Source: Methylacidiphilum sp. Yel
Lineage (GTDB): Bacteria; Verrucomicrobiota; Verrucomicrobiia; Methylacidiphilales; Methylacidiphilaceae
Assembly: GCF_004421185.1 (NCBI RefSeq)
Contig: NZ_LXQB01000088.1
Coordinates: 1-64,000 of the forward strand
Length of the DNA stretch: 64,000 nucleotides
Direction: 5' to 3'
Shown piece after piece: positions 3,757 to 34,797 of the stretch; the first letter of the stretch is position 1; each line of letters starts with the position of its first letter. Position numbers and translations under genes: made by a program. The notes under the pieces were generated by a model. It searched no databases. It saw nothing but the letters and a program-made list of their open reading frames with translations, and was not told the origin of the DNA.

Positions 3757-4344
3757 CTAGCGATCGGAAGCTGGAAGCGGTAAGTCAGGATCGAGCTTAT
3801 GTGCCTGATGCTCTAGAGATATTGCCTCAGCTATTTTTCCTTCCATCCGAAATGTAGCAGCATTATTCATAAGACAGAGAGCAAGTAATTTCTTTTGCAC
3901 CACAACCCCTTTGCCTCCACCGGCTCCCGCTTGGCGGTAAGTAGAACCCACGCTATATCCACTGGACATCTCCCCCTGGCTTACCGCAGCACGACCAAGA
4001 CCAATAGCCCGAGCAAACATCTTATGAGCTTCGGAGTATTTGCCTTCGGTCGCATAGACCACTCCAAGATTATTATAGGGAAGGAGAAGACTGAATGAGC
4101 CAAAGCTAGCTTTGGCCATCATCGTATGAAGATCAGCTTCAGCTTGTTTCTCGGCATCTGCTGCATGGCCAGAATTCAAAAGAACCTGGGCCTGTTTACC
4201 TTCTCCATTAGCTCCAAGGATGAATTGTAGCTGCCATCCAATGGAAGTGGGCTTCGTTGCTTGCCTGGGGAATAATACACCAAGAGGCATAGCAAAGAGA
4301 AAAAATTGAACCAACCATCGAATTAGGAATCTGTATGAAAGCAT
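3757..4344 (-). CDS. Secreted TPR-repeat protein
   Basis: A 195-aa protein with an N-terminal hydrophobic segment (residues 8-25) that looks like a signal peptide or anchor. Tetratricopeptide-like helices follow: LLPYNNLGVVYATEGKYSEA at about 88-107 and LALCLMNNAATFRMEGKIAEA at about 154-174. TPR folds mediate protein-protein contact. It starts 17 bp after the stop of the TonB receptor and should be on the same transcript, so a periplasmic accessory role for that receptor is a fair guess. No enzyme motif is visible. Confidence 0.6.
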   Translation of the reverse strand: MLSYRFLIRWLVQFFLFAMPLGVLFPRQATKPTSIGWQLQFILGANGEGKQAQVLLNSGHAADAEKQAEADLHTMMAKASFGSFSLLLPYNNLGVVYATEGKYSEAHKMFARAIGLGRAAVSQGEMSSGYSVGSTYRQAGAGGGKGVVVQKKLLALCLMNNAATFRMEGKIAEAISLEHQAHKLDPDLPLPASDR

Positions 4345-10336: not shown

Positions 10337-11065
10337 AAGGAACTTCAGTTGAACCAATCAGTCTGTCAGTATTGTCAGCATCATTTTCCTCTTCAAGCCA
10401 TGGAACGTATCTCCTTCCTTGCTGATCCACAAAGCTTTGTTGAATATGATCACAATCTCCTTTCTGTTGATGTCCTTGGATTCAGCGGTGAAAAAAGCTA
10501 CGAAGAAAGACTCCGTTACTATCAGGAAAAAACGGGTCTTAACGAAGCGGTGGTTTGCGGAAAGTGCACCATCGGCTCTATTCCAGTTTTTATAAGTGTG
10601 ATGGATTTTAACTTCCTTGGTGGAAGTATGGGCAGTGTGGTAGGGGAAAAAATAACCCGAACGATTGAAAGATCCCTGTCAGAAAGAATACCTCTTATTA
10701 TCATATCCGCATCAGGTGGGGCCCGAATGTATGAGGGAATGATAAGCCTTATGCAGATGGCTAAGACCTCTGCGGCTCTTCAAAGGCTTTCTCAGGCGGG
10801 CATTCCCTACATCTCCATATTGACCAATCCTACAATGGCCGGAGTTACTGCTAGTTTCGCTTCCCTAGGAGATATTATTATTGCTGAACCCAAAGCAATG
10901 ATCGGTTTTGCAGGCAGTAGAGTGATCAAAGAGACAACGCAGCAGGAGCTGCCGCAGGGTTTTCAAACATCTGAATTCCTGTTGGAAAAAGGCCTCATCG
11001 ATAAAATAATCCACAGAAAAGATCTTAGATCTTCTCTAAAAGAGCTGCTTTATTTTTTGGTCTGA
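10232..11065 (+). CDS. accD: Acetyl-CoA carboxylase carboxyltransferase, beta subunit
   Basis: AccD pairs with AccA to make malonyl-CoA. The 277-aa protein has the N-terminal four-Cys zinc ribbon (CPSC near residue 25 and CQYC near 46), followed by the crotonase-like carboxyltransferase core with IISASGGARMYEGMISLMQM near 155-174 and TNPTMAGVTASFA near 198. The start is GTG with AAGGAG 11 bases upstream. It was originally downstream of comF, as the flanking comF remnant shows. Confidence 0.96.
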   Translation: MINKDKPQIPSGDKVLDIPEGLWTKCPSCSRFLYNKELQLNQSVCQYCQHHFPLQAMERISFLADPQSFVEYDHNLLSVDVLGFSGEKSYEERLRYYQEKTGLNEAVVCGKCTIGSIPVFISVMDFNFLGGSMGSVVGEKITRTIERSLSERIPLIIISASGGARMYEGMISLMQMAKTSAALQRLSQAGIPYISILTNPTMAGVTASFASLGDIIIAEPKAMIGFAGSRVIKETTQQELPQGFQTSEFLLEKGLIDKIIHRKDLRSSLKELLYFLV

Positions 11066-21023: not shown

Positions 21024-21854
21024 TTAGCTATGGCTCTGCCCATTTTTAATTGGTTGTACGAACAACGGAGAAAATTGGCGTAGAGGCAATGCCGAAGGAA
21101 TATGAAAATTTTTAAAAGGATCTCTTTCTAACTCCAGTTCGTAAATCACGCGATCACACCGGTAAAATCGTTTCTGGAAATAAATGGGTTGATCTGAAAC
21201 GGTAAAGGAAGTCCGATGAATCGCTAGAACAGCCTGGTTTTCTTTTATTTCTAAATAGCTTGCCAGTTCGCTATCCGCATTCACAGCTTCAATCAAATAT
21301 CGACCACGGATTACAGGAATCTTGTATTCACGTTGTAATATCTGATATATAGTTTCTCTTTCTAAATCCCGACCATCCAAAAGCCGGGCATAATAAAGAG
21401 GAAGCCAGGTTCTATCAAAAGCGATAGGTTTTCCATTACCAAGCCGTAACCGATCAAGCCGAACGCAAACACTCCGTTCTTCAATACCTAACTCTTTGGC
21501 AACATCCTTTGAAGCATTTTCTTGGGCATAAAATAACACTTTGGATGAAGGCTCAATACCAGCGCTCGAAATATCCTCAGAAAAATCAGTCAGTCTGACC
21601 AATCCATGACGTAACCTAAAATCTGCAACAAAAGACCCAAGCCCTTGTTTTCGATAAATCAACCCCTCTGATTCCAAAGTTTGAAGCGCCCTTCTGACCG
21701 TAATACGGCTTATGTTAAAGGTCTTTTGAAGCTCTTTCTCCGAAGGTAGCTGCGCCCCAATCCCCAGACGACCAGAATCAATTTCGTTTCTAATCCACTG
21801 GCTAACTACCTCATGTCGTGGTAACCGTTGATAGCGAGAAATACTTGATTGCAT
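21024..21854 (-). CDS. GntR-family regulator with a UTRA effector domain (HutC subfamily)
   Basis: The 276-aa protein has an N-terminal winged helix (VVSQWIRNEIDSGRLGIGAQ, then LPSEKELQKTFNISRITVRR, about 14-58), followed by a UTRA domain (about 90-240) with FDRTWLPLYYARLL and the typical VLAIHRTSFTVSDQPIYFQ segment. UTRA domains bind small molecules, often sugars or amino-acid derivatives. A 14-bp sequence just before its start is repeated before cysI, which suggests autoregulation and control of sulfite reduction. Confidence 0.88.
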   Translation of the reverse strand: MQSSISRYQRLPRHEVVSQWIRNEIDSGRLGIGAQLPSEKELQKTFNISRITVRRALQTLESEGLIYRKQGLGSFVADFRLRHGLVRLTDFSEDISSAGIEPSSKVLFYAQENASKDVAKELGIEERSVCVRLDRLRLGNGKPIAFDRTWLPLYYARLLDGRDLERETIYQILQREYKIPVIRGRYLIEAVNADSELASYLEIKENQAVLAIHRTSFTVSDQPIYFQKRFYRCDRVIYELELERDPFKNFHIPSALPLRQFSPLFVQPIKNGQSHS

Positions 21855-21859
21855 TTATT

Positions 21860-21873
21860 TCTCTATAGATATA
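21860..21873 (-). promoter_or_regulatory. Shared 14-bp motif before the GntR regulator gene
   Basis: On the coding strand it reads TATATCTATAGAGA, identical to 19,207-19,220. The match extends to a following ATA one base later. It overlaps the place where ribosomes bind, so it could act as DNA operator or in the RNA. Confidence 0.45.
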
Positions 21874-21999
21874 CTATATTTGAAAACTATACAAGAATAA
21901 TCTCCTAAACTTGATCAATTGAAATATCAACTAATAACATTATATAAAAACACCTTTTTTTCAACCTTTTTCATTTTGTCTCACTGATATACTAAAGCA

Positions 22000-23004
22000 A
22001 TGGAAGAGTATTCATTTTCATTACCCAAGGAACTGATTGCCCTTGATCCAACGCCTCAAAGGGATCATTGCAAACTAATGGTAGTCGACAGAAAAACTGG
22101 TCGTTTTTATCACTGCCAATTTTCTGATCTTCCCCAATTTCTTTCAAAAGAAGACCTCCTGGTCTTGAATAATTCGAAGGTATTGCCCGCTTTTTTCAAA
22201 TCAATGGATGAAAAGACAACCTTTCTTTTTGTAGAGGCTCTAACCCCCTACCAATGGAAAGTCATGGCCTCCCCCTCCAAACATCTAAAGAATGGTTTAA
22301 TCGTTTGGCTAAAAAAGTCGCAAAAAGATGGCTATTGTGAGCTTGAGGCAAAAATCGTTTCTAAACTTTCCGGTGGCTATTATATTCTGGAATTTGATAA
22401 AGAACCCAATCTTGAAAGCCTTGGACTTCCTCCCCTTCCTCCTTATATCCGAAAGTTGAGAAGAAAGAATAACAGACCCGAAATAGAACAGCAGGATATG
22501 GAATACTATCAGACCGTCTTTGCCCAATGCCCTGGATCGATTGCGGCGCCCACAGCTGGACTCCATTTTTCAAAGGGGTTACTGAGCAAGTTTAAAACCG
22601 CTTTTATTACTCTTCATATTGGTCCTGGCACTTTTCGTCCCCTTACCTCTGAACAGCTAAAGACAGCGAAATTAGAACCAGAATATTTTATCATCAATGC
22701 CAACCTAAAAAAAATGTATAAAGAGGGGCAACGAATTGTTGCCATTGGCACCACTGTAGTGCGTGTTTTAGAAACGATAAAAAACCTAGAACCTCAAGAG
22801 GGATGGACTGATCTTTTTATTTTTCCACCCTTCCAATTCCAACGGACAGGGGCTTTAATCACCAATTTTCATTTACCAAAATCTAGCTTGTTTCTTTTAA
22901 CCTGTGCCTTTGCAGGGACCGATCTTCTTAAAGCAGCCTATGAAGAAGCAATCAAAAAAGGCTATAGGTTTTATAGCTATGGCGATGCTATGCTGATTCT
23001 TTAA
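22000..23004 (+). CDS. queA: S-adenosylmethionine:tRNA ribosyltransferase-isomerase
   Basis: QueA converts preQ1 in tRNA to epoxyqueuosine, using the ribosyl group of SAM. The 334-aa protein shows YSFSLPKELIALDPTPQRDH at the start, LPPYIRK near 147, YQTVFAQCPGSIAAPTAGLH (about 169-188), LHIGPGTFRPL near 207 and the C-terminal FHLPKSSLFLLTCAFAG. Full length and intact. It is followed by tRNA-Arg. Confidence 0.96.
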   Translation: MEEYSFSLPKELIALDPTPQRDHCKLMVVDRKTGRFYHCQFSDLPQFLSKEDLLVLNNSKVLPAFFKSMDEKTTFLFVEALTPYQWKVMASPSKHLKNGLIVWLKKSQKDGYCELEAKIVSKLSGGYYILEFDKEPNLESLGLPPLPPYIRKLRRKNNRPEIEQQDMEYYQTVFAQCPGSIAAPTAGLHFSKGLLSKFKTAFITLHIGPGTFRPLTSEQLKTAKLEPEYFIINANLKKMYKEGQRIVAIGTTVVRVLETIKNLEPQEGWTDLFIFPPFQFQRTGALITNFHLPKSSLFLLTCAFAGTDLLKAAYEEAIKKGYRFYSYGDAMLIL

Positions 23005-23124
23005 AAGAATGAAACAGTTTTCCTTTCTAAAGAAAATAGAAAAAAATAGCCATCACCGAACAATTGTTCTATGCTAGAGGACAATTCATAATCGTTTTTA
23101 AAAGCAGTTTCCATTTTAGAGAGT

Positions 23125-23198
23125 GGTCCCGTAGCTCAGAAGGATAGAGCAGCGCTTTCCTAAAGCGCGGGTCGGGAGTTCGAATCTCCCCGGGACCG
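23125..23198 (+). tRNA. tRNA-Arg (anticodon CCU)
   Basis: A full cloverleaf can be drawn: acceptor GGTCCCG with CGGGACC, D stem GCTC/GAGC, anticodon stem GCGCT/AGCGC with loop TTCCTAA (anticodon at 23,159-23,161), and T arm GGGAG-TTCGAAT-CTCCC. The 3' CCA is not encoded. Its 3' 46 bases double as the attachment site of the integrated element, and integration leaves the tRNA whole. Confidence 0.97.
23153..23198 (+). repeat. attL: 46-bp attachment core inside tRNA-Arg
   Basis: These 46 bases, from the anticodon stem to the discriminator base, recur without mismatch at 32,948-32,993. Just inside the element an 11-bp direct repeat TTTTCCTCTGG occurs at 23,204 and 23,256 and might be integrase arm sites. 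Confidence 0.93.
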
Positions 23199-23635
23199 GG
23201 AAATTTTCCTCTGGTGACAAGCCCATTCCCGGCATTTTATATGGATACACAGGATTTTTCCTCTGGAAGGCATTGCATTTACATTAGCATATGTGTGCAT
23301 AAATGCGCAACGAAGTTAACGAAAAATTTACGACACTTAGAATGAAGATTGGATGGGCAAAGTGCACCCAATCCAGACAGAGTTTTCCTCGCCCATTCTT
23401 GATCTGCATTAGGCAGACGATACAAAAATGGCCGAAAACCGTAGGCTTTTTCGCCTTTTGAAAGGCGCACCATGTCTTGTTTTTTTTAAAAAATTTTCTT
23501 GCCACAAGACCTTTTTTTTTCCCAGAATAGCGAGATAAAAGATGCTCCCGATCAACAGCGAGCCGCTTCCTCTTGGCCACCTCAACATTGAACGAGGAGA
23601 AGGAGAATGGGGGGTGCAAAAAACAAAGGGAAAAC
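23199..23635. other. Element left-end region without a clear gene
   Basis: Besides the TTTTCCTCTGG repeats there is a tight hairpin, CGCCTTT-TG-AAAGGCG, at 23,452-23,467. Minus-strand open frames across 23,279-23,643 have no recognisable content or convincing start. The promoter of the cargo genes should be here. Confidence 0.5.
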
Positions 23636-24613
23636 ATGCACATCCGAAATGGATTGCTTAAAACGCTAGCGCTTCTTTTTGCCTTCTTGCCCTTACTTTC
23701 GGCTTGGGGCGAAGACGAATACTTCGCGGAAAAGCGGAAGATCCTACAGGGTCTCGGCGTACCGCAGGGGGAACCAATGCAAGTTAAGGACGTCGAGGAT
23801 GCCGATTGGGCAAAACAGGCGTTGTCCTATTGGGAGGGCCTCCCTAATTGGAGGCAAATTCTTCTTTACCATTACAATTGCTACCAGGATCTGCGTACTA
23901 AAGTTACCGATGAATTCAATGTTTCTGCCCTCCAGCATATTAATCAACGCTCGTGGACTGGGGGTAGCTTGGTTCTCCACGCCGGAGAGTCTGAAAGAAA
24001 CATCCGTTTTAAGGACGTTGACTGGAGGGATGCCCGGATTTGGCACGGGGCCGTCTCTGGTGTAAGATACAGGGCCATCGTGGAGGGTGGTGATTCTGAT
24101 ATTCAGTATAGAATCCAATTCTTTCCGAGAGAAGACAAGGTAAAAGGACTCCAAAAGGAGTACATTTGCACCAGTATATCGAAATTGTTCATTGCAAGCA
24201 TAACAGCGGAATCGGACGACGAAATCATCCTCGTAGTACACAGGATGACCAATCTACCGGCAGGTACTATTAACACAAAAACGCTTCTCGCAGACAAGAG
24301 AGGGGAACGAAGCGTTTGCTGCAGTTCTGTAACAGCTCCGCGTCCGGGCCACTGCTACACAGTTATTCTCGTGGATGATGACGAAGATGAGTTTGTGGGA
24401 ACGTTGGATGCTTCAAAGAACTGGATCTTTTACAACTTTAAAGACGGAAAGTTGTCGGTAGTGAAGCCTCGTCCGTCTTCTCCGGATAGGCAACCTGAGC
24501 CTCAGACGCCCTCCCAGGGCACAATAAAGCAGTGGCTTGCTATGGCTGCAGCCCTAAGCAAGGCCATGACAGGACATAACAAGACAAGACAGGCTGGGGC
24601 AGATAAGAGATGA
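23636..24613 (+). CDS. Exported cargo protein 1 of the integrated element
   Basis: With the start at the ATG at 23,636 (GGG five bases upstream) the product has 325 residues. It begins with a clear signal peptide (LLKTLALLFAFLPLLSAWG). The mature part is about 300 aa with several Cys, a middle region rich in beta-like segments (YRIQFFPREDK, IILVVHRMTNLPAGT), an acidic patch VDDDEDEF, and a Pro/Ser/Gln-rich tail. I recognise no family. Its TGA overlaps an ATG of the next frame (ATGA), so the two cargo genes probably form an operon. Confidence 0.6.
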   Translation: MHIRNGLLKTLALLFAFLPLLSAWGEDEYFAEKRKILQGLGVPQGEPMQVKDVEDADWAKQALSYWEGLPNWRQILLYHYNCYQDLRTKVTDEFNVSALQHINQRSWTGGSLVLHAGESERNIRFKDVDWRDARIWHGAVSGVRYRAIVEGGDSDIQYRIQFFPREDKVKGLQKEYICTSISKLFIASITAESDDEIILVVHRMTNLPAGTINTKTLLADKRGERSVCCSSVTAPRPGHCYTVILVDDDEDEFVGTLDASKNWIFYNFKDGKLSVVKPRPSSPDRQPEPQTPSQGTIKQWLAMAAALSKAMTGHNKTRQAGADKR

Positions 24614-24621
24614 TTTGTTCT
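24566..24621 (+). repeat. Cassette-flanking repeat, left copy
   Basis: Two words occur in order: ATGACAGGACATAACAA (24,566) and AGATAAGAGATGATTTG (24,601). The same pair recurs at 25,042-25,193, beyond cargo gene 2, so that gene is bracketed by related sequence. A third, weaker copy of the second word lies at 25,456. Confidence 0.7.
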
Positions 24622-24657
24622 TGTGCTTTTCAAGGGAATGAAGTTATCATTGATCAT

Positions 24658-24999
24658 ATGAAAAAACTAATGCTGTCAATTCTTCTGTGCGTCATGTGTT
24701 CCACCACATATGCTAGTGGGATGTTTCTGAACCAAGTGGGAACAATGACATTCGGCCAGGCTGATGGCCAAAACATCTGGCTCAACAGAATCGGTCCAAT
24801 CACAATGGGATATGTGGGCAGGGAGAACGTCTGGCTATATGATTCTACCTATGGGAGCACTATGACATTCGGACACGTCGGGAGTGAACCTGTGTGGATA
24901 AACAATGGGAATGCATGGATGAGCTCATATTTTGGTGATGAAAATGTGGAAGATTCTGATGTGTGGATGAATGTCGATGGTTCAGAAAATGATGAATAG
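24658..24999 (+). CDS. Exported cargo protein 2, small tandem-repeat protein
   Basis: 113 aa from the ATG at 24,658, which starts a good signal peptide (KKLMLSILLCVMCSTTYAS). The ATG at 24,610 would add 16 residues before it. The mature protein is built of about four short repeats, each near 20 residues with a Gly-x-x-Thr-x-Gly start and a Trp near the end: GTMTFGQADGQNIWLN, GPITMGYVGRENVWLY, GSTMTFGHVGSEPVWIN, then a diverged SSYFGDENVEDSDVWMN. It is acidic at the C-terminus. The repeats look like short beta strands of a small solenoid or surface polymer (inference). No known function. Confidence 0.65.
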   Translation: MKKLMLSILLCVMCSTTYASGMFLNQVGTMTFGQADGQNIWLNRIGPITMGYVGRENVWLYDSTYGSTMTFGHVGSEPVWINNGNAWMSSYFGDENVEDSDVWMNVDGSENDE

Positions 25000-25041
25000 C
25001 TTCGGCAATTCTCATAGGGGACAGAAAAACAAAGACAGATC

Positions 25042-25193
25042 ATGACAGGACATAACAAAACAAGACAAGACAAGACAAGAAAAAATCCAATCCAATCCCA
25101 GCCAATCCAAGACAATCTAAGACAAGAAAAGAAAGGACAAAAAAGGAAAGATAATAACATGTCATGACATGGAGAAGAGATGATTTGTTCTTG
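25042..25193 (+). repeat. Cassette-flanking repeat, right copy
   Basis: Repeats ATGACAGGACATAACAA and, after an expanded AAGAC/CAATC microsatellite, AGAAGAGATGATTTGTTCTTG. Compare 24,566-24,621. Confidence 0.7.
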
Positions 25194-25363
25194 CGTTTTG
25201 CCAGTAAAGTAGGTTAATTGCACAAGGAGCGCTCGATCTCTGAATGCTCCAGGCTTTTTTCTTTTTTGCTGAGCATGTAGTGTGCATACCGGTATAACCG
25301 GATCCAGTAGGTTGCTCACGCAGGGAAAGAGTCCTGGAGCAATTTTTTTTCTCACACCTAATA

Positions 25364-25382
25364 CTCTACTAAATTAGTAGAG
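25364..25382. promoter_or_regulatory. Palindromic operator-like site
   Basis: CTCTACTAA and TTAGTAGAG are perfect inverted 9-bp arms around a single A. It lies between the cargo genes and the origin-like block. A repressor site is likely, and the element's small HTH protein is one possible ligand. Confidence 0.4.
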
Positions 25383-25583
25383 AAATCTCACCTCTATAGG
25401 TACCCCTAGAGTGCAAATGTTTATCAGCGTCAGCGCTCTATAAAAGCGGTGCTCCAGATAAGAGATAATTTGTCGTTAAGTTTTTTTTCCCAGTTTTTTC
25501 ACCACCTTGTTTATAAGTCTTTGTATAGCAGGGACATACACATAGCTATGTCTGTAATTCCTTATGGGTAGAGGAAACAGGTC

Positions 25584-25960
<377 letters not shown>

Positions 25961-26083
25961 AGAGTTAGCCATGCCATAATCCAATACCCCCCTTCCCTTC
26001 CAAGATCAATCATGGCAAAGAGTTCATCCCCACTGAAGCTTTTTCTCCAATGGGGGATTTTTCATCGACATTCCCTCTATGCC

Positions 26084-26809
26084 TTATGGGGAAGAAGTGG
26101 GGAACTCTGAAGAAGCTAGTTGAGCCATACAAGCTGGATAATCTTCTATGAGGGATTTCACCCAAGCAACCGAGAATAGCCATCTCCTCGAATGGTCGAT
26201 TTTATAATGCTTGAAATACTTCTGTATATATTTGATGACTTTCTTAGCTCCTTCTTTGTACTTGTCAGGAGGAAGTTTGTTTTTCAGGTATTTTAATAAG
26301 ATTTGGTTTTGAATTTCTGGGGACAGCTTATCAACATCCTGGATTTCTCGTTTTCCTTGGTTTTTCTCCTCCCAAATCCTCTTCAATTCATTGGAAAGTT
26401 CTTGGATGGAAAGATCTTTCTCTGGTTGAGATGGGGATGGTTGAAACACCATAGAGTTATGTTTACAGGAGGATTCTTCTTCTATAGCCTTCTCTACCAA
26501 GCAGGACCATGTGTCTTTTGTGTGACTTGGAATGTTGCTGCAGATAAACTCAGTTTTTTCTCTACATTGGGGAGGTGGGAGGGGAAGTCTGCTTTTGAAG
26601 TGCATATACACTAACATACCTTGAACTTGTAGAGGGAGTTTAGAAGCGATCTCTTTGTTAACGTCCCGGATATGAAGTGTCCCTCGGTTTAATCCCTGAA
26701 TGCTATTGTTCAAGACATCGCATTCTATAGAGGTGAAGTTGTTGTGTAACTCTTCTTCTTTACCAAGGATCAGGAAAAGTTCTTGGATTGTTGGTGATTC
26801 GGGTTTCAT
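26084..26809 (-). CDS. Protein with two copies of the primase C-terminal module
   Basis: 241 aa from the ATG at 26,809, which overlaps the primase stop (ATGA). This start is preferred to the ATG at 26,887, which lies inside the primase gene. It contains two diverged copies of a module of about 75 residues, each preceded by a (S/T)IQEL motif: copy 1 with IRDVNKEIASKLPLQVQ and copy 2 with IQDVDKLSPEIQNQILLKYL and a Trp near its end. The same module ends the primase. No known domain is recognised. It is probably a replication partner or regulator, inferred from its place. Confidence 0.6.
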   Translation of the reverse strand: MKPESPTIQELFLILGKEEELHNNFTSIECDVLNNSIQGLNRGTLHIRDVNKEIASKLPLQVQGMLVYMHFKSRLPLPPPQCREKTEFICSNIPSHTKDTWSCLVEKAIEEESSCKHNSMVFQPSPSQPEKDLSIQELSNELKRIWEEKNQGKREIQDVDKLSPEIQNQILLKYLKNKLPPDKYKEGAKKVIKYIQKYFKHYKIDHSRRWLFSVAWVKSLIEDYPACMAQLASSEFPTSSP

Positions 26810-29800
26810 TTTGTTTTTTCTTTCTTTTGCTCCCGAAGATTGTTCACCAAGTCTACAACTTTGTTCGCCCAATCGAAATAACTCCATTCCGGATCTTGTA
26901 AATCTTTTTGTATGGCGTTGATAACTTCTTTTTGTTGTTTAAGGGGAAGGTTGGCGGCTTCTATGTATGTTAATAACAATTTGTATTGAGTTTTTTTAGT
27001 AAGCTGATTAATGAGCTCTGGCGAAATATCTCGTGGGTCTTTTCCCTCCTGTATCTCCTCCATTTCTATTTCTGTAAGATCCTTAATAATCTCATCCTCT
27101 ATTTCTGTTTCTTCTGCATTGGAAGGGTTTTGTCTTGTTGATAAGAGCTTACCATTTGTCTGTTCTGGTGTGATTTGTGATGAAAATTCTTGGGTGAAAT
27201 CTGGTTGCCCATTTGAGGACTCTGATGTGATTTGTGATTCTTCTGGCTGGAAAAGTTCTTGGATGGAAAGATCTTCCTTTGGGTGACCATTCATTGGTGA
27301 TGATTCTGGTGTGATTTGTGGTTCATCTCCATTTTTTTCATTGAGCAGGGAGGCTATCCATCCTGAATTTGTACTTTCGTAAATTCGGAGTGGGTTCCCC
27401 TTCTTGTCCTTGCCATATTTGACAATACGAATGCCAATCTTTGGATTTTTCTCCAGTTTGTTCCGGACAATACGGACAGAATAAAAGTTTATCTCCTTTA
27501 TGTTCTTTTCGCTCCACCCAAGCTCCTCGGCTTTCTTTTTCATTTTCTCAGATAGTTCTGTGTCTGCAATCGGTCCAAGTTTTCCGTCTTTCTGTTCATC
27601 TTTAAAGACATTTGCAAATAGTGTAAGATGAAAATGTGGATCTTCTTCAATATATTGTTCAAAGGTTTCCTGGGTGTTCTTTCTATAGATGTCATCAAAT
27701 GTTCCAGGCTTCCCTAACAATCCTCCTTCTTCTAGAAGTCTTATCGCTCGATGTATTTCTACAAAGCACACGCCCGGCGAGGTAGACTTTATGCGCTCTT
27801 CTGGAGGCAAATCTTGCCAAGGTTTCATTATATATCCTAAGGCTTTTAGCCACCATCCCCAAAGGCGAGGACGCAGATTTTTAGCATCATCTATTAAAAA
27901 TCTCGAAGAAATGTTATATTCACCCTCTCCCCTCCCAGGAAATTCTACAACCCAAAGTCGGCGTTCAAGGTCAGCTGCAGCGGAGTTTTGGATAAGTTGA
28001 GAGGGTTGGTAAATGCTTGTGATAATAAGATTGGGATGAAGTACATATTTGTTTATATCGTGATTAGTCCAATTCTGTCGTTGGAAATGCCCCCCTACTG
28101 TTGAAGAAGAGCATAAGAGTTGATGTGTTTGAGGATCTATACTTTTTGGTTCGGCATTATCCCAAATAACTATATCCTGCTGACTGAATAGAAGTGGTAG
28201 ATCTTCTTTACCTTTCCCTAGAGTATTTATAACGCTATCATCACCGGTAAGTGCGGCTTTAAGCTGTTTAGCTATCGTGCTTTTCCCAGATCCAGGGGGT
28301 CCAATGAGATAGAGGATATAGCGAGGTACTTCTCCAAGGAAGGTTTGAAGGTGAGATGCTATAAATATGTAGGCCTTTTCGGTATCGACTTGAAAAATTT
28401 TTTTATAGAATTGAAGCAAAGGTCCTTCTTCTTTCAACTCTTCAGGATTAGGAAACTCGATCTTGGGCAAAGGAGTGGTGTCTTTAGGAAGGACCCAGCG
28501 ATGAGATGGAAAGCGCTCAATTAGTTTGTGATAGGTAAGCTGCCATATTTTATACTGCTGAGTTTCCTTATCAACTTCCCCAATCAAGAAGGCCCCCTGT
28601 TGAGGGTTCTCCACCATCACGAATGCGATCGGAGCGTGGTTTTCGTAAATAGTATAATACCTCTCCGTATGTATTTTTACCTGACCGTCATATAAGTTAG
28701 ATTTACGTTCTCCTCGCTGTGTATCTTTCGCTCGTTTTTCAAGTATAGTAAGAACTTTTTCCTCATTTATAGGCGGAATTTTAAGATCATCCGCCAGGCC
28801 CACGATAGCTTTGACGGCTTCATCAGAGTTCACAGGGATCGTTTCTAGAATTTTCCCTTCACTGTTCTTTATATCTATATACCAATCACCGTTCGTGTTT
28901 TGGATGAAAGAGAGGCGATTGGATTTTTCGATTTCATTAGCTAGAATTTTCTTTTCCAGGCCAAGCAGAGTAGATAAAGAGATTTTTCCGTTCTTTTCGC
29001 TAGCCTGCCTAGAATACAGTTCTGCCTTTTGGATTAGCTCTCGTTGAATATTGACAAGCTTCTTTGCTCTTAAATCCCAACAACCCGGCACCAGGGGTTT
29101 CCACTTTTTAACAGCATCTTTGAGGGAGGTTTCGTCTGTGTCGCAAGTGGAAGCTAGCGCCTTGAAGAAGATGCCGCAATTGTCCTCGGAGGGGTTGGCG
29201 TTGCTCCAGTTTTTAACCCATTGATCAAATGGGATTCTTTGGAGCTTCTCTTGCAGAACCTTTTTGCGCTCCTCAGGGTTGTTGATTGTTTCCCTCAAGT
29301 GTTTAGAGAAGTCGTCGTACCCTTTAAAATTACTTGGCCAGGTTAGAAGAAAAACCTCAACTCCTTTTTTGAGCATCAAGAATCCGAACCTAAGAACAGC
29401 GCCCAGGACATCGCTGTTATTTCTCCAATCCCCATCTGGCGCCCAGTACACCTGCTCATAATTCCCCTCCTCTAGAAACCGCTCGAGTGCCGGTTGTAAT
29501 CTGTGCTGGTAAGAGGGCGTCCCATCTTGCAGTTTAGAAGTTGTGAGCCAGCAGCCGTTCGTCCCTACGACGTCTGCATCAAAGTCCATATCCTGAGCGG
29601 CAGCCAAAGCTTTGGCGGGGCCCTCGACAATGTAGAGCACTCCCCCTTCTTCCCTGTGGGAGCTATTAGATATCGGAAAGAGCGGCCATGCGCCTGTTTG
29701 CGCCAGGAACTTGCCTGAGGGGTGTCCTGTTTCTTCCTCATACGAGGTAAACCATTTGTCCTGGTCTTTATCACTCTTCCAGACAGGCCGAAGAAGGAAG

Positions 29801-30081
29801 ACGTGCTCCAGCCACTTGTCCTCCTTCCAAGCTATACCACGGAACCATACCAGTTCGACTAAGTTATTTTGGTGTTGCTCCAAGGTAACTGCTGCTGCAG
29901 GGTTCCGAAGCCTTTCTTCAACTTCACTCCAACACCCCTCCCCAAAAGGAGGTTTGATCACTTCAACCAAACCCTCAGGAACGTTTACAATCCCCCGTTG
30001 GTTGAAATACTCGCTAGTTGAAAAATTTTCCTTTTCTTGTTCAAAAGAATTTGTTATGTTAATATCATCAGTAGGGTTCAT
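26806..30081 (-). CDS. Element primase-helicase with Toprim-like and SF3/AAA-type ATPase domains
   Basis: About 1,091 aa from the ATG at 30,081, which has AGGA eight bases upstream; the TTG at 30,111 is a weaker start. Residues 150-240 hold a Toprim-like domain of the type found next to plasmid and phage primases (YIVEGPAKALAAAQDMDFDA). Residues 560-760 are a helicase ATPase with Walker A GPPGSGKST (about 594-602), Walker B DIVIWDNAE and an arginine-rich DLERRLWVVEF. The C-terminal 180 residues carry a threefold SQIT-x-E linker repeat and the module shared with the next gene. It should open and prime the nearby iteron origin, as P4 alpha or D5-type proteins do. Confidence 0.85.
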   Translation of the reverse strand: MNPTDDINITNSFEQEKENFSTSEYFNQRGIVNVPEGLVEVIKPPFGEGCWSEVEERLRNPAAAVTLEQHQNNLVELVWFRGIAWKEDKWLEHVFLLRPVWKSDKDQDKWFTSYEEETGHPSGKFLAQTGAWPLFPISNSSHREEGGVLYIVEGPAKALAAAQDMDFDADVVGTNGCWLTTSKLQDGTPSYQHRLQPALERFLEEGNYEQVYWAPDGDWRNNSDVLGAVLRFGFLMLKKGVEVFLLTWPSNFKGYDDFSKHLRETINNPEERKKVLQEKLQRIPFDQWVKNWSNANPSEDNCGIFFKALASTCDTDETSLKDAVKKWKPLVPGCWDLRAKKLVNIQRELIQKAELYSRQASEKNGKISLSTLLGLEKKILANEIEKSNRLSFIQNTNGDWYIDIKNSEGKILETIPVNSDEAVKAIVGLADDLKIPPINEEKVLTILEKRAKDTQRGERKSNLYDGQVKIHTERYYTIYENHAPIAFVMVENPQQGAFLIGEVDKETQQYKIWQLTYHKLIERFPSHRWVLPKDTTPLPKIEFPNPEELKEEGPLLQFYKKIFQVDTEKAYIFIASHLQTFLGEVPRYILYLIGPPGSGKSTIAKQLKAALTGDDSVINTLGKGKEDLPLLFSQQDIVIWDNAEPKSIDPQTHQLLCSSSTVGGHFQRQNWTNHDINKYVLHPNLIITSIYQPSQLIQNSAAADLERRLWVVEFPGRGEGEYNISSRFLIDDAKNLRPRLWGWWLKALGYIMKPWQDLPPEERIKSTSPGVCFVEIHRAIRLLEEGGLLGKPGTFDDIYRKNTQETFEQYIEEDPHFHLTLFANVFKDEQKDGKLGPIADTELSEKMKKKAEELGWSEKNIKEINFYSVRIVRNKLEKNPKIGIRIVKYGKDKKGNPLRIYESTNSGWIASLLNEKNGDEPQITPESSPMNGHPKEDLSIQELFQPEESQITSESSNGQPDFTQEFSSQITPEQTNGKLLSTRQNPSNAEETEIEDEIIKDLTEIEMEEIQEGKDPRDISPELINQLTKKTQYKLLLTYIEAANLPLKQQKEVINAIQKDLQDPEWSYFDWANKVVDLVNNLREQKKEKTK

Positions 30082-30085
30082 AGCA

Positions 30086-30391
30086 TTAATCCTGTTTTCG
30101 CCGAAAGGCAATGGAGACAGATTCAGTAGGATTCATATCATTGAGCCCTATGTGGGAATGGCCGCATAGGGCTTTGTTTTTAGACGCAGTGCGTTTTCTC
30201 CTCTTCCCCAATCCTTCCTGGGCAATCCTGGCAAGCTCCTCCTCAGGAATGCGGACAAGCTTCCCTAGCCTACGGAATTGAATTTGACCGCTTACGATCC
30301 ACCTTCGTACAGTGGCTGGATGCACTGAGAGGATTTGAGCAGCCTCGCTCACAGTGAAAAACCTCCAGGGGACAGGTCCAGGCTTAGGCAT
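30086..30391 (-). CDS. Small helix-turn-helix protein, excisionase-like
   Basis: 101 aa with a MerR/AlpA-type DNA-binding domain at residues 10-56 (FFTVSEAAQILSVHPATVRR, then a wing GQIQFRRLGKLVRIPEEEL). Proteins like this act as excisionases or as activators of integrase genes in satellites. A basic tail (GKRRKRTASKNK) follows. Its start overlaps the previous gene by 8 bp and its stop lies just before the primase start, so translation is probably coupled. Confidence 0.8.
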   Translation of the reverse strand: MPKPGPVPWRFFTVSEAAQILSVHPATVRRWIVSGQIQFRRLGKLVRIPEEELARIAQEGLGKRRKRTASKNKALCGHSHIGLNDMNPTESVSIAFRRKQD

Positions 30392-30707
30392 ACACCACCT
30401 CCTCTGGCCGGTCTTCCTTAGTGCTAGCTGCCACCTTTTCTGGTGAAATAGCTTGGATAATTTGAGAAGCGTTATGTTCCCCGACTTTTTGTTTCTCTTC
30501 CTTACAAATCTCTAACCATACTTTCCGAAGCTGATCAGAAGGCACCCAGGCTTCATCCCATATGCGATAAACGGTCAACCTGTCCTCTAGAATAGCTTGC
30601 TGAAGAGCTGGTAAACGTGATTTAGGTTGCTTAGAGAGGAACTCTCCAAGATTGGTTAAACGAATAAGTTCTCTGCCAGAAACAAGAAAGATAAATTCTC
30701 TTACCAT
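30384..30707 (-). CDS. Element protein of unknown function, 107 aa
   Basis: The frame overlaps the HTH gene by 8 bp and shares its direction. The N-terminal 70 residues (REFIFLVSGRELIRLTNLGE, then LPALQQAILEDRLTVYRIWD) look like a small alpha/beta fold. The C-terminus is Glu/Lys/Ser-rich. I do not recognise it. Confidence 0.55.
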   Translation of the reverse strand: MVREFIFLVSGRELIRLTNLGEFLSKQPKSRLPALQQAILEDRLTVYRIWDEAWVPSDQLRKVWLEICKEEKQKVGEHNASQIIQAISPEKVAASTKEDRPEEVVYA

Positions 30708-30759
30708 ACCACAAGGTGGCTTGTGGGATGGTTTGTAGAAAGCCTTCCTACAAAAAAAA

Positions 30760-31653
30760 TTAAAGAAGAGGAAGTGGTTTGCCTAATTGAGAAAACATTT
30801 CTTTTTTTGCCAGTAATTTTTGTCGGATGCACCCGGCCAGCAGGTCTACGGCTTTGGCCCACTTGTTGGATTTGATGTGTATATTTTTTTTCTCAAGAAT
30901 CTTATATATTATATCCGGGTCTTCTTTCTGCTTTTCTTTTAAGGCCTGTTTGGCCACTTCTTTGCATGCTGTGTTTACCTTATAACCTTGCTGTATTAGC
31001 TTGTAGGCTTGATACGCAAGGTTATCGATATTGATATCAGAAGTCCATGCATCAGGATTCTTAGGTTTATACTCAGTGAGTATTTTATGGTTTATAAGCT
31101 CATCCACTTCTAATAACTCATAAGCTTTGAGTTGCTCATCCCTCCACGTATTTTCTATAAACTCCTCAACTCGCCTAATAGCCTCTTTTCCTGAGTTGAC
31201 CTTAGGGGGACAATAACAGAATTCAGCGCATGCCGCATAAATTCTCTGTGGCACCAGGATAGCGGCTCTGAAATCCTTGGCTAAAGTTTTAGACCCCGTT
31301 CTCCAGACAATAGATTTTACAGCCAGATCCTCTGCTATTTTTAAAATACTAGCCAATTCGTCAAAGAAAATTCCTGCAAGCCGTAAGGCTTCTAAATTTT
31401 TTGAGAAGAGGGCCCAAAAGATAAAAATCTTAATCCGACCTAGGACAACGTCTCCCTCGCTCTGTTTCAGCGGGAAAGGGACGATTGGTTGTCTCAAGAG
31501 CTCCTGAGCAAGACACACTGGATGAAACTCAAGCGGGATTTCTACATTGGGGTTCGGCCGTGGTGGTCCCCAATAGCCTTGAAGAGCCTGGATTGAATAA
31601 AACTTGTAATTCTCAGTATCTTGTGGTATATTTTTTTCGTTTAGAGTGTTCAT
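30760..31653 (-). CDS. Element protein of unknown function, 297 aa
   Basis: A mainly helical protein between the integrase and the replication genes. It has a hydrophobic segment IKIFIFWALFSKNLEALRLAG near 75-95, a two-Cys stretch CAEFCYCPP near 142-150, and a long charged helical second half (KQALKEKQKEDPDIIYKILE). No domain is recognised. It may be an element-specific regulator. Confidence 0.6.
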   Translation of the reverse strand: MNTLNEKNIPQDTENYKFYSIQALQGYWGPPRPNPNVEIPLEFHPVCLAQELLRQPIVPFPLKQSEGDVVLGRIKIFIFWALFSKNLEALRLAGIFFDELASILKIAEDLAVKSIVWRTGSKTLAKDFRAAILVPQRIYAACAEFCYCPPKVNSGKEAIRRVEEFIENTWRDEQLKAYELLEVDELINHKILTEYKPKNPDAWTSDINIDNLAYQAYKLIQQGYKVNTACKEVAKQALKEKQKEDPDIIYKILEKKNIHIKSNKWAKAVDLLAGCIRQKLLAKKEMFSQLGKPLPLL

Positions 31654-31733
31654 AATATAGATGGGCCGGGCCTAGTCCGTCCGGCCTTTCCCATTTCTAT
31701 TTAATAAATACATTTCATTCTCCATGACAAATT

Positions 31734-32879
31734 TTATAATCTAAAAGGAAGTTCCTCAGGTAATGTAATTGGAGGTTTGATTAGAAAATATTCTTTTGCC
31801 TCTTCTTTGGTTCTCAATGCACAATAATGCCTATAAGTGACCGATGGGTTTGTGTGTCCTAGAATGGCTGCTGTTTTTCCTGCATTCTCATACAAAGCCA
31901 AGTGATAGCTAGCAAAGCTATGCCGCATCCCGTTAGGCACCCACTTGACTCCTGCTTTGTCAGCCAGTTTCCGGAGTCTTTTGTTTAGATTTGAAGGAGA
32001 CACTGGTTGTGATGGGTCGTCTTTTTGACAGGCATCAAGCCATAAGCTTAAGGGTTCTGTGATATCAATAATCCTGGTGGAAGCTGTTTTTGCTTTGCCT
32101 GCCTGGATCCGAATCTGCTTGTCTGTGATATCCTTCCACGTTAAACGACATAGCTCAGCAGTCCTGATTCCTGCAAAGAATCCTAGGACCAAAGGGGGAA
32201 GGCATTTAGGATCGTGCTCCAGGGAATATAAGAGAAGTTTCTGCACATCGACTGGAGAGAAAGTTTGAGGTTCAGTGGGTTTGGGCCTTGGAACAGGGAT
32301 TTCGGCGATAGGGTTGTTTAAAATCCATTGGCGCATACGGGAGTAGTTAAAGAAGACAGAGAGCACGCGATGTACGTTCCGAGCCGTCCAGACGCTAGGC
32401 TGCTTTCCTAAATAATCTAAAAGTTCTGTGCGGGAAATGCCGCCAAGCTTTCTTCCACCAAAGAATCTGGTAGCATGCCAAAGATAGCGCCTAAGATCAG
32501 AAAAACGACGAGGTCTAACCTCTCGAGATTTTGCTTCAAGAAAAGCTCCAACCGCTTCCTCCCAAACTGGACTGAATCGCTCGGCTTGGATTTGCTTTCG
32601 GCCTCGATCCAAAGCTTCCTCCAGTGAGGAACCAAGTTGCCGCAGCTCTTCTTGTACCTTTTCTACTTTTTTGAGCAAAGCCAATCGTTGTGGAGAAAGA
32701 GACAAAGCTTCTTTCCCTGCCGCCTCTAATGCCTGCTTTAGTTCTCTAGCCCTTGACTTTGCTTGAGCTTCGGAATTAAAGTATTCTCTATGAGATTTCC
32801 CATCCTCTCCCCAGTAACTCACAAGCCATTTGTATCTGGGAACGTCCGACTTTCTTATTTTTGGGATTCGTTTTAGCAT
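31734..32879 (-). CDS. int: Tyrosine recombinase (integrase) of the element
   Basis: 381 aa. An N-terminal arm-binding region and a coiled segment (about 60-105) precede the SAM-like core-binding domain (105-195) and the catalytic domain (205-360). Catalytic residues seen: Arg239 in FFAGIRTAELCRLTW, a Lys near 264, Arg319 in NGMRHSFASY (the usual first His of H-x-x-R is Asn), His342 in ILGHTNPSVTYRHY, and the nucleophile Tyr352. It lies 68 bp from attR, as expected for a tRNA-targeting integrase, and should catalyse both integration and excision. Confidence 0.93.
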   Translation of the reverse strand: MLKRIPKIRKSDVPRYKWLVSYWGEDGKSHREYFNSEAQAKSRARELKQALEAAGKEALSLSPQRLALLKKVEKVQEELRQLGSSLEEALDRGRKQIQAERFSPVWEEAVGAFLEAKSREVRPRRFSDLRRYLWHATRFFGGRKLGGISRTELLDYLGKQPSVWTARNVHRVLSVFFNYSRMRQWILNNPIAEIPVPRPKPTEPQTFSPVDVQKLLLYSLEHDPKCLPPLVLGFFAGIRTAELCRLTWKDITDKQIRIQAGKAKTASTRIIDITEPLSLWLDACQKDDPSQPVSPSNLNKRLRKLADKAGVKWVPNGMRHSFASYHLALYENAGKTAAILGHTNPSVTYRHYCALRTKEEAKEYFLIKPPITLPEELPFRL

Positions 32880-32947
32880 AATGATAAATATAACGACGCT
32901 TCAACGACAACACAAGAAAAAAATTCTTCTACCAGATTAACATATAA

Positions 32948-32993
32948 CGCTTTCCTAAAGCGCGGGTCGGGAGTTCGAATCTCCCCGGGACCG
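32948..32993 (+). repeat. attR: 46-bp copy of the tRNA-Arg 3' end
   Basis: Identical to 23,153-23,198. The rest of the tRNA is absent here, so this is the displaced partial copy that marks the right end of the element. Confidence 0.95.
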
Positions 32994-33071: not shown

Positions 33072-34116
33072 TTCAACAAATTTGCGCAGGAGACCCCGCC
33101 TTTCAAGGCGGGGAGAGATAGCGCCACCGCGCAGCGGCGATGCTTTACAAGTGAAACATAAATTTCTTTAATCGTGAACATGAATGAATTGCCAGCCACC
33201 CAATCGCAGAGGTGCAAACTGAAGCTCCTGCTCACTAAAGAGCAGGAGGAGGCGGTTCGGCGCACGGCGTTGGCTTACCGTAACCCCCCCTGAATCACGC
33301 ATCCACTGTCGCTTTTTTGGGCGGGAAGATATCGCAAGGCATGAAACTGCAAAGGCTGGTGTCCCAGGATTTGCGCGAGAGGTTAGGGCTGCCAGCTCAA
33401 ATGGCATGCAACGTGCCCAGGCAAGCGGCTGCGGCCTACAAAATCCTCTGGGAACGCGACAAAGTGGGCGCGGCCCATAAAGCGAAAGGCTGGATCGGCC
33501 CGGCGCTATAAGGGTCTCGACAAGGCCGTCGAAAAGGCTTTGGACCGGAACCCGCAGGCCTCCATCACCACGGTCAAGGGGGTGGACATGAACCGCCGGA
33601 ACATCGCGGTGAAATCCAATACCCAAGGCAAATGTCGTTTTTATCCTAGTGGACACCGAAGGCACCTGGCCAAGCGCGTGCCGCCAGTAGACGAAGTGCG
33701 CTGCAAGCGAAGGGCATTCGCGGAGCCACACGCGATGGTAGTCATGGAGTGGCTAAAGGCTATCCGTCATCGAACCGAGTGCAGACACTCGGAGAAGGTT
33801 TCCGTCAAACGCCGCAAGGTCAACCGCAAGGGGAGCACCCGGTTTGCGGGCATGTTGGGCGGGAGAATCGGCCCAATAAGGGACTGCTGTTTGTATGCGC
33901 CCATTGTGGGTATACGCTCCAGGCCGATTTAGTGGCTGCCAGGAACATCAGCATGCGAACGCTTTTCATCTGGCAAGACTGGGTGAGGACGGGGCGATAG
34001 TCAGCCGTCCCTGAAGCATCGGGCGATGAAGCCAAAGCCGCGCGTCTTTCTAGATACGCGCAAGCCAAAGGTGGAGCCTGGATGCAAGCTCCATCTTTTA
34101 GGACAGAGTAGTTGAC
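33072..34116 (+). mobile_element. Degenerate tnpB-only element, copy 1
   Basis: The left end carries a perfect hairpin CCCCGCCTT-TC-AAGGCGGGG (33,094-33,113) and the right end finishes GTAGTTGAC. The tnpB reading starts near 33,174 (NELPATQSQRCKLKLLLTKE), breaks at a run of C near 33,287, and goes on in other frames through a RuvC-like VDMNRRNIAVKSN to the zinc-ribbon part LLFVCAHCGYTLQADLVAARN. There is no Y1 transposase. It is a sibling of 38,113-39,171 and lies just outside attR. Confidence 0.8.
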
Positions 34117-34797
34117 CTATTTGATATGCCTTTTTTTATGCCCAAAGGAGGTTGCATTGAGTGGTTAAAAAAAGAGGAGAAAATTGAAAACTTTAATGGC
34201 TCATTGAGCATAAATCACAGATATTTTTGTCCGTAACGGAGAGGGCTGCAATTTATAAATTAAAAACCCTTTTCTTTGGATTGGGAAAAACTACTATTAT
34301 AACCTTCCTATTAGGCAAAATACCAATAAAAACTTATTGGCTTAGATAACTTTTCGTCCCTTAGATCGATATCCACCTTCTTTTGATTCACCCCAAACAT
34401 AGGATAGGAGAAAAATCTATAATTTTGGGATAAAATGCCTTAACTACTAGAAAGTGCACTATTTTTATAAAAACTTAGGGACAAATAAGAAAAAAAAATC
34501 CGCTAAATTTTTGCTAACATTTCCGAAATAGAACAAAATTGAAACATAATAATTTTTTATAAAACTATGAAATTTCCTGTTTTTATTTTTGTATTTATTC
34601 TTCTTTTTGTCATTGTCTGGGGGTTTGCTTTTTATTATATCTCCACAAGATTTTGAATCCTTTTATCAACAGATTAATTAACATCTCAGGACTGAAGTCT
34701 AAGCTTGCTTGGGTCTTTTATATAAGGCATAACGCTATTTTTTTTTCTTCTTGTAGGAGGAATCTAAAAGAATCAAAAACTGCTTAATATCCCTCTT
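34117..34797. other. AT-rich intergenic region before dinB
   Basis: Apart from a possible 29-residue membrane peptide at 34,567 I see no gene. A strong AGGAGG at 34,757 is not followed by a usable start codon at normal distance. It may be a decayed leader. Confidence 0.5.
34567..34656 (+). CDS. Possible 29-residue single-pass membrane peptide
   Basis: ATG to TGA encodes MKFPVFIFVFILLFVIV followed by WGFAFYYISTRF: one transmembrane helix with a Lys at the start and an Arg at the end. Such tiny proteins often belong to respiratory or transport complexes. No ribosome site is clear, so it may be chance. Confidence 0.3.
   Translation: MKFPVFIFVFILLFVIVWGFAFYYISTRF

What the first reader, a model, noticed from the sequence alone, without database searches (positions are those of the whole stretch)
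23153..32993. A 9.8-kb integrated element with its own replication module and exported cargo
Perfect 46-bp repeats at tRNA-Arg(CCU) and downstream of an intact tyrosine integrase define both ends exactly. Inside are an excisionase-like HTH protein, a primase-helicase, an iteron-like origin and two signal-peptide-bearing proteins, but no structural, conjugation or resistance genes. Such an element in a verrucomicrobial host would be a satellite or integrative plasmid with an unknown way of spreading, and the exported cargo is atypical for satellites.
Basis: partly seen in the sequence, partly recalled or inferred. Interest (0 to 1): 0.82.

Follow-up and report, generated by a model that had tools for sequence, protein, structure and literature searches.

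The report
Small tRNA-integrated plasmid with exported cargo
A 9.8-kb piece of DNA that inserted itself into an arginine tRNA gene carries its own integration and replication genes plus two apparently exported proteins of unknown function; it is real and was mobile in recent evolution, but it is a new example of a familiar kind of element, an integrative plasmid.

Summary
A perfect 46-bp repeat (23153-23198 and 32948-32993, 9,795 bp apart) bounds an element in tRNA-Arg(CCU), and two same-genus genomes have the uninterrupted site, so the boundaries are exact. Inside are a tyrosine integrase, an excisionase-type HTH protein, a replication protein (DUF3854 Toprim-type primase plus SF3 helicase), an iteron cluster (11 ATGCAGG in about 370 bp; shuffles reach at most 6) and two predicted secreted proteins. 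The helicase half is homologous to replication proteins of small circular plasmids (pH6Ac, pM44602); the Rep of a sibling element matches 34 plasmid records, mostly non-mobilizable, against one phage. That sibling, in another genus of the family, has the same gene order but other cargo; a decayed relative in a same-genus genome carries a homolog of the small secreted protein. Best reading: an integrative plasmid that excises, replicates as a circle and hitches on an unidentified carrier. The kind is known; this lineage and its cargo are new. How it moves between cells and what the cargo does remain open.

The parts
23124..23199 (+). tRNA-Arg(CCU), integration target, restored by the element's copy of the 3' half
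   Evidence: ARAGORN, Rfam tRNA E 1.3e-12
23153..23198 (+). attL core, 46-bp direct repeat
   Evidence: empty sites in G003 and G004
23636..24613 (+). cargo 1: predicted secreted protein, 325 aa, no homolog found
   Evidence: signal sequence by eye; uninformative model
24658..24999 (+). cargo 2: small predicted secreted protein, 113 aa, with repeats of the type xTFGxxG
   Evidence: homolog beside the decayed integrase of G001, E 2e-8; further homologs in G000:C16, G002, G009
25583..25957 (.). candidate replication origin: 11 ATGCAGG iterons in both orientations on either side of an A-tract of about 80 bp (25736-25815)
26084..26809 (-). orf241, accessory protein; ATGA overlap with the rep stop codon; shares a module with the Rep C-terminus
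26806..30081 (-). replication protein, 1091 aa: DUF3854 (Toprim-type primase) plus SF3 helicase
30086..30391 (-). HTH_17 excisionase/regulator, 101 aa
30384..30707 (-). orf107, unknown; overlaps the excisionase gene by 8 bp
30760..31653 (-). orf297, unknown; same position as orf331 of the sibling element but no detectable homology
31734..32879 (-). tyrosine integrase, 381 aa; catalytic-type residues R239, K264, R319, H342, Y352 present (first box II His is Asn in all four relatives aligned)
32948..32993 (+). attR core, displaced 3' half of the tRNA gene

Best explanation
An integrative plasmid. Integrase recombines the 46-bp tRNA 3' half on the circle with the chromosomal tRNA-Arg(CCU), restoring the tRNA (shown by anatomy and empty sites). 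The HTH protein promotes excision (inferred from family). On the excised circle the replication protein is proposed to bind the ATGCAGG iterons, melt the neighbouring A-tract with its SF3 helicase and prime with its Toprim domain (domains and iterons shown, function inferred). Orf241, whose start overlaps the rep stop and which shares a module with Rep, is probably a replisome accessory (inferred). The element has no recognisable transfer genes, so it would move by hitching on a helper, or by DNA uptake or vesicles (unknown). The two secreted proteins are exchangeable cargo acting at the cell surface or outside (inferred).
For: Exact repeat and two empty sites. Intact integrase and excisionase-type HTH. 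Rep helicase half homologous to pH6Ac Rep (E 8e-9) and pM44602 (5e-6); the sibling Rep matches 34 plasmid records, 29 typed non-mobilizable. A low-confidence model (pLDDT 51) nevertheless retrieves almost only SF3 helicases at the top: papillomavirus E1, poxvirus D5/E5, NrS-1, AAV Rep. DUF3854 proteins support autonomous plasmid replication in cyanobacteria (PMC10079941). Iteron cluster far above shuffles. Sibling element G010 has the same order int, orf, HTH, Rep, accessory orf, and its own 9-nt repeat GCGCCGTTT in two clusters.
Against: No circle, copy-number or excision data. Iterons and A-tract are not proven to be an origin. The Rep as a whole has no close relative, so its function rests on distant homology. 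No partition or toxin-antitoxin gene was recognised.
Confidence: 0.72

Rival explanations
1. A phage satellite (functionally like P4 or PICI): integrase, excisionase, primase-helicase and origin are its own, and a helper phage supplies capsids.
For: Gene content int, HTH, primase-SF3 helicase, iterons and about 10 kb size is satellite-like. The sibling Rep has a distant relative in one phage, Zeta1847.
Against: No terminase, capsid, packaging or helper-interference hit in any inner gene. No PF05065 capsid in own genome or 12 relatives; phrog_2 terminase hits are marginal and the same model rings in 11 of 14 control genomes. No relative in IMG/VR.
Confidence: 0.15
2. An integrative mobilizable element that uses a conjugative helper through an oriT on the circle.
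For: Size, tRNA site and lack of an own transfer system fit; three uncharacterised proteins could include an unknown mobilisation factor.
Against: No relaxase family in the element; PF03432 relaxase found neither in the own genome nor in the family members searched, only in G016 of the same order. Other relaxase families were not searched genome-wide.
Confidence: 0.08
3. A fixed genomic island or decayed prophage remnant that no longer moves.
For: The relative in G001 has decayed: stop in the integrase, IS-like repeats.
Against: All eight genes here are open without internal stops, the repeats are perfect and the site is empty in two same-genus genomes.
Confidence: 0.05

Closest known systems
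Small non-mobilizable plasmids with a primase plus SF3-type helicase Rep: pH6Ac (11,991 bp, Methanothrix harundinacea), pM44602 (20,019 bp, Methylobacterium sp. 4-46)
   Same: Helicase half of Rep homologous; small circular replicons typed non-mobilizable
   Different: Free plasmids; their N-terminal halves differ (weak Prim-Pol match in pH6Ac); no tyrosine integrase is annotated on them
Cyanobacterial DUF3854 Rep plasmids (CyRepA1 on pSYSA, CyRepA2 on pCC5.2; PMC10079941)
   Same: DUF3854 domain in a protein shown to support autonomous replication
   Different: Their helicase part is a DEXDc domain, here SF3; those are free plasmids
Sibling element on G010:C101 (L059) at tRNA-Thr(TGU)
   Same: Integrase 37% identical, same gene order, DUF3854 plus SF3 Rep
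   Different: Other tRNA, two HTH_17 proteins, a GHKL-type ATPase with a DUF4325 protein; left end not on the contig
Tycheposons and other hitcher elements with a tyrosine recombinase (PMC11389934, PMC10872708)
   Same: Tyrosine recombinase at a tRNA, cargo, no own conjugation or virion genes recognised
   Different: Homology to tycheposon genes was not tested; reported cargo there is largely metabolic
P4-like satellites and PICI
   Same: Similar layout: integrase, excisionase, primase-helicase, iterons
   Different: No packaging or capsid-modifying gene found here

Membership tests
tRNA-integrated genomic island (Islander type) | tRNA gene restored, displaced 3' fragment at the far end | tested here: met
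tRNA-integrated genomic island (Islander type) | tyrosine integrase next to an end | tested here: met
   31734-32879, 68 bp from attR
tRNA-integrated genomic island (Islander type) | uninterrupted site in relatives | tested here: met
   G003, G004
Integrative plasmid | Rep homologous to plasmid replication proteins | tested here: met
   pH6Ac E 8e-9, pM44602 E 5e-6, helicase half only
Integrative plasmid | origin with iterons | tested here: inconclusive
   cluster significant, function untested
Integrative plasmid | exists as a replicating circle | not testable with these tools
   no reads available
Phage satellite (P4-like, PICI) | packaging, TerS or capsid-interference genes | tested here: not met
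   no PHROGs or Pfam hit of this kind
Phage satellite (P4-like, PICI) | helper phage present | tested here: inconclusive
   no PF05065 in 13 genomes; other capsid families not searched
IME / ICE | relaxase or conjugation genes | tested here: not met
Tycheposon | homology to the Prochlorococcus elements | not tested
   no reference sequence compared

The most novel reading that the evidence does not exclude
The element belongs to an undescribed lineage of integrative plasmids of this verrucomicrobial family whose exported cargo helps its own spread, for instance by cell contact or vesicle uptake, in hosts with no detected capsid or relaxase helper.
Probability: 0.06. Interest if true: 0.7.

Novelty: new member of a known kind. 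Interest (0 to 1): 0.36.

Why it matters
It gives an exactly bounded, apparently intact element in a bacterial genus for which I found no described integrative plasmid in the papers searched. If it replicates as a circle, its int/attP and rep/iteron parts could serve as genetic tools there. It also adds a clean case to the general open question of how elements without transfer genes move.

Tried and rejected
Close relatives of Rep: none in phages, plasmids, IMG/VR, GTDB contigs or 289 phylum genomes. Defence cargo: no PADLOC hit beyond weak ATPase or HTH matches. Cargo 1 has no homolog and its single-sequence model is useless (pLDDT 39). The G016 DUF3854 hit (L072) lies beside a relaxase and a gene that reads like VirD4/TraG and is a different, plasmid-like locus. 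The apparent tRNA-Thr on L059 is judged a displaced att half rather than a true tRNA (no Rfam tRNA hit). A TCTACCAG motif shared between integrase and att in the window and L045 may be an integrase arm site; too little data. Composition does not set the element apart (GC 43.3% against 42.1% for the rest of the window).

Full report
Observation. The 46-bp direct repeat is perfect and lies at 23153-23198 (inside tRNA-Arg(CCU), 23124-23199) and 32948-32993, 9,795 bp apart. Two same-genus genomes carry the uninterrupted locus: G003 and G004 align to window 21551-23198 and continue directly at 32948, sharing the 46 bp once. This fixes the ends and shows insertion after these lineages split, or loss in both.

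Gene content. On the minus strand from the attR end: integrase (31734-32879), orf297, orf107, excisionase-type HTH_17 protein, Rep (26806-30081) and orf241; several overlap or nearly touch, as in an operon. On the plus strand next to attL: a 325-aa and a 113-aa protein with N-terminal signal sequences recognisable by eye. No gene has a phage structural, relaxase, conjugation or resistance hit. All eight reading frames are intact.

Replication protein. The N-terminal half has DUF3854 (E 3.6e-8), a Toprim-related domain found in cyanobacterial Rep proteins with demonstrated replication activity (PMC10079941). The C-terminal half passes the cut-off of PF00910, an SF3-helicase family, and a low-confidence model still retrieves SF3 helicases at the top of the PDB search. 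Pairwise it is homologous to the Rep of plasmids pH6Ac (E 8e-9) and pM44602 (E 5e-6) and, over both halves, to the Rep of the sibling element in G010 (E 6e-5 and 1.5e-4). The G010 Rep itself matches 34 plasmid records (32-37% identity in those listed), 29 of them typed non-mobilizable, and one phage. So the protein is a divergent member of a replication-protein family of small plasmids, with interchangeable primase halves (Toprim-type here, a weak Prim-Pol match in pH6Ac).

Candidate origin. Eleven of 17 ATGCAGG copies in the 64-kb window lie in 25584-25956, in both orientations around an A-tract. For any 7-mer, no shuffle exceeded six in 400 bp and no other part of the window exceeded four. 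The sibling has a different 9-nt repeat, GCGCCGTTT, in two clusters at either side of its HTH-Rep region. That fits repeats recognised by each element's own Rep; it is inference.

Relatives. G010:C101 (L059), another genus of the same family, carries int, orf331, two HTH_17 proteins, DUF3854-SF3 Rep and an accessory orf in the same order, with a displaced tRNA-Thr 3' half next to the integrase, and a GHKL-type ATPase plus DUF4325 protein further left. G001 holds a decayed relative at tRNA-Thr(TGU): repeated tRNA 3' halves, an integrase with an internal stop, and a homolog of the 113-aa secreted protein. Elsewhere in the phylum, contigs of G276 and G069 hold an SF3-type primase near a gene that reads like a tyrosine integrase (by eye). 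Homologs of the small secreted protein also occur away from integrases, including a second one in the same genome. Thus this cargo is drawn from a family that the hosts carry anyway.

Mechanism. Integration and its exactness are shown. Excision, circular replication from the iterons and an accessory role of orf241 are inferred. Transfer is unexplained: no PF05065 capsid was found in 13 genomes and no PF03432 relaxase in the own genome or family members searched, but other capsid and relaxase families were not searched and the own assembly is in 88 contigs.

Host. Kinship tables put G001-G004 in the same genus. The name Methylacidiphilum rests on my recollection that G002's length, 2,287,145 bp, equals that of M. 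infernorum V4; it was not verified by a tool.

Verdict. Real, precisely bounded and recent; best described as an integrative plasmid, a known kind, with a divergent Rep and unexplained exported cargo.

Noticed in passing
window 33078-34117: This stretch beside attR is missing from the empty-site genome G003 and holds fragments that read like a broken TnpB (zinc-finger end at 33749-34000): probably a separate decayed IS605-type insertion.
   Followed up: partly
L045 2638-10564 (G001): tRNA-Thr(TGU) with two displaced 3' copies (about 3880-3916 and 10528-10564): stacked and decayed islands with IS-like repeats and a split integrase.
   Followed up: partly
L059 952-2222: GHKL-type ATPase next to a DUF4325 STAS-like protein beside the sibling element's Rep region, a possible regulatory or defence pair.
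   Followed up: no
L097 6076-6546 (G000:C16), L076, L077, L082: Family of small secreted proteins with xTFGxxG repeats, also elsewhere in this and related genomes; function unknown.
   Followed up: partly
window 26395-26429 and 27252-27286: Orf241 and the Rep C-terminus share a module, with a 35-bp DNA stretch 91% identical, suggesting domain duplication.
   Followed up: partly
window 25020-25160: Low-complexity run of AAGAC and AATCC units between cargo and the iteron region, of unknown meaning.
   Followed up: no
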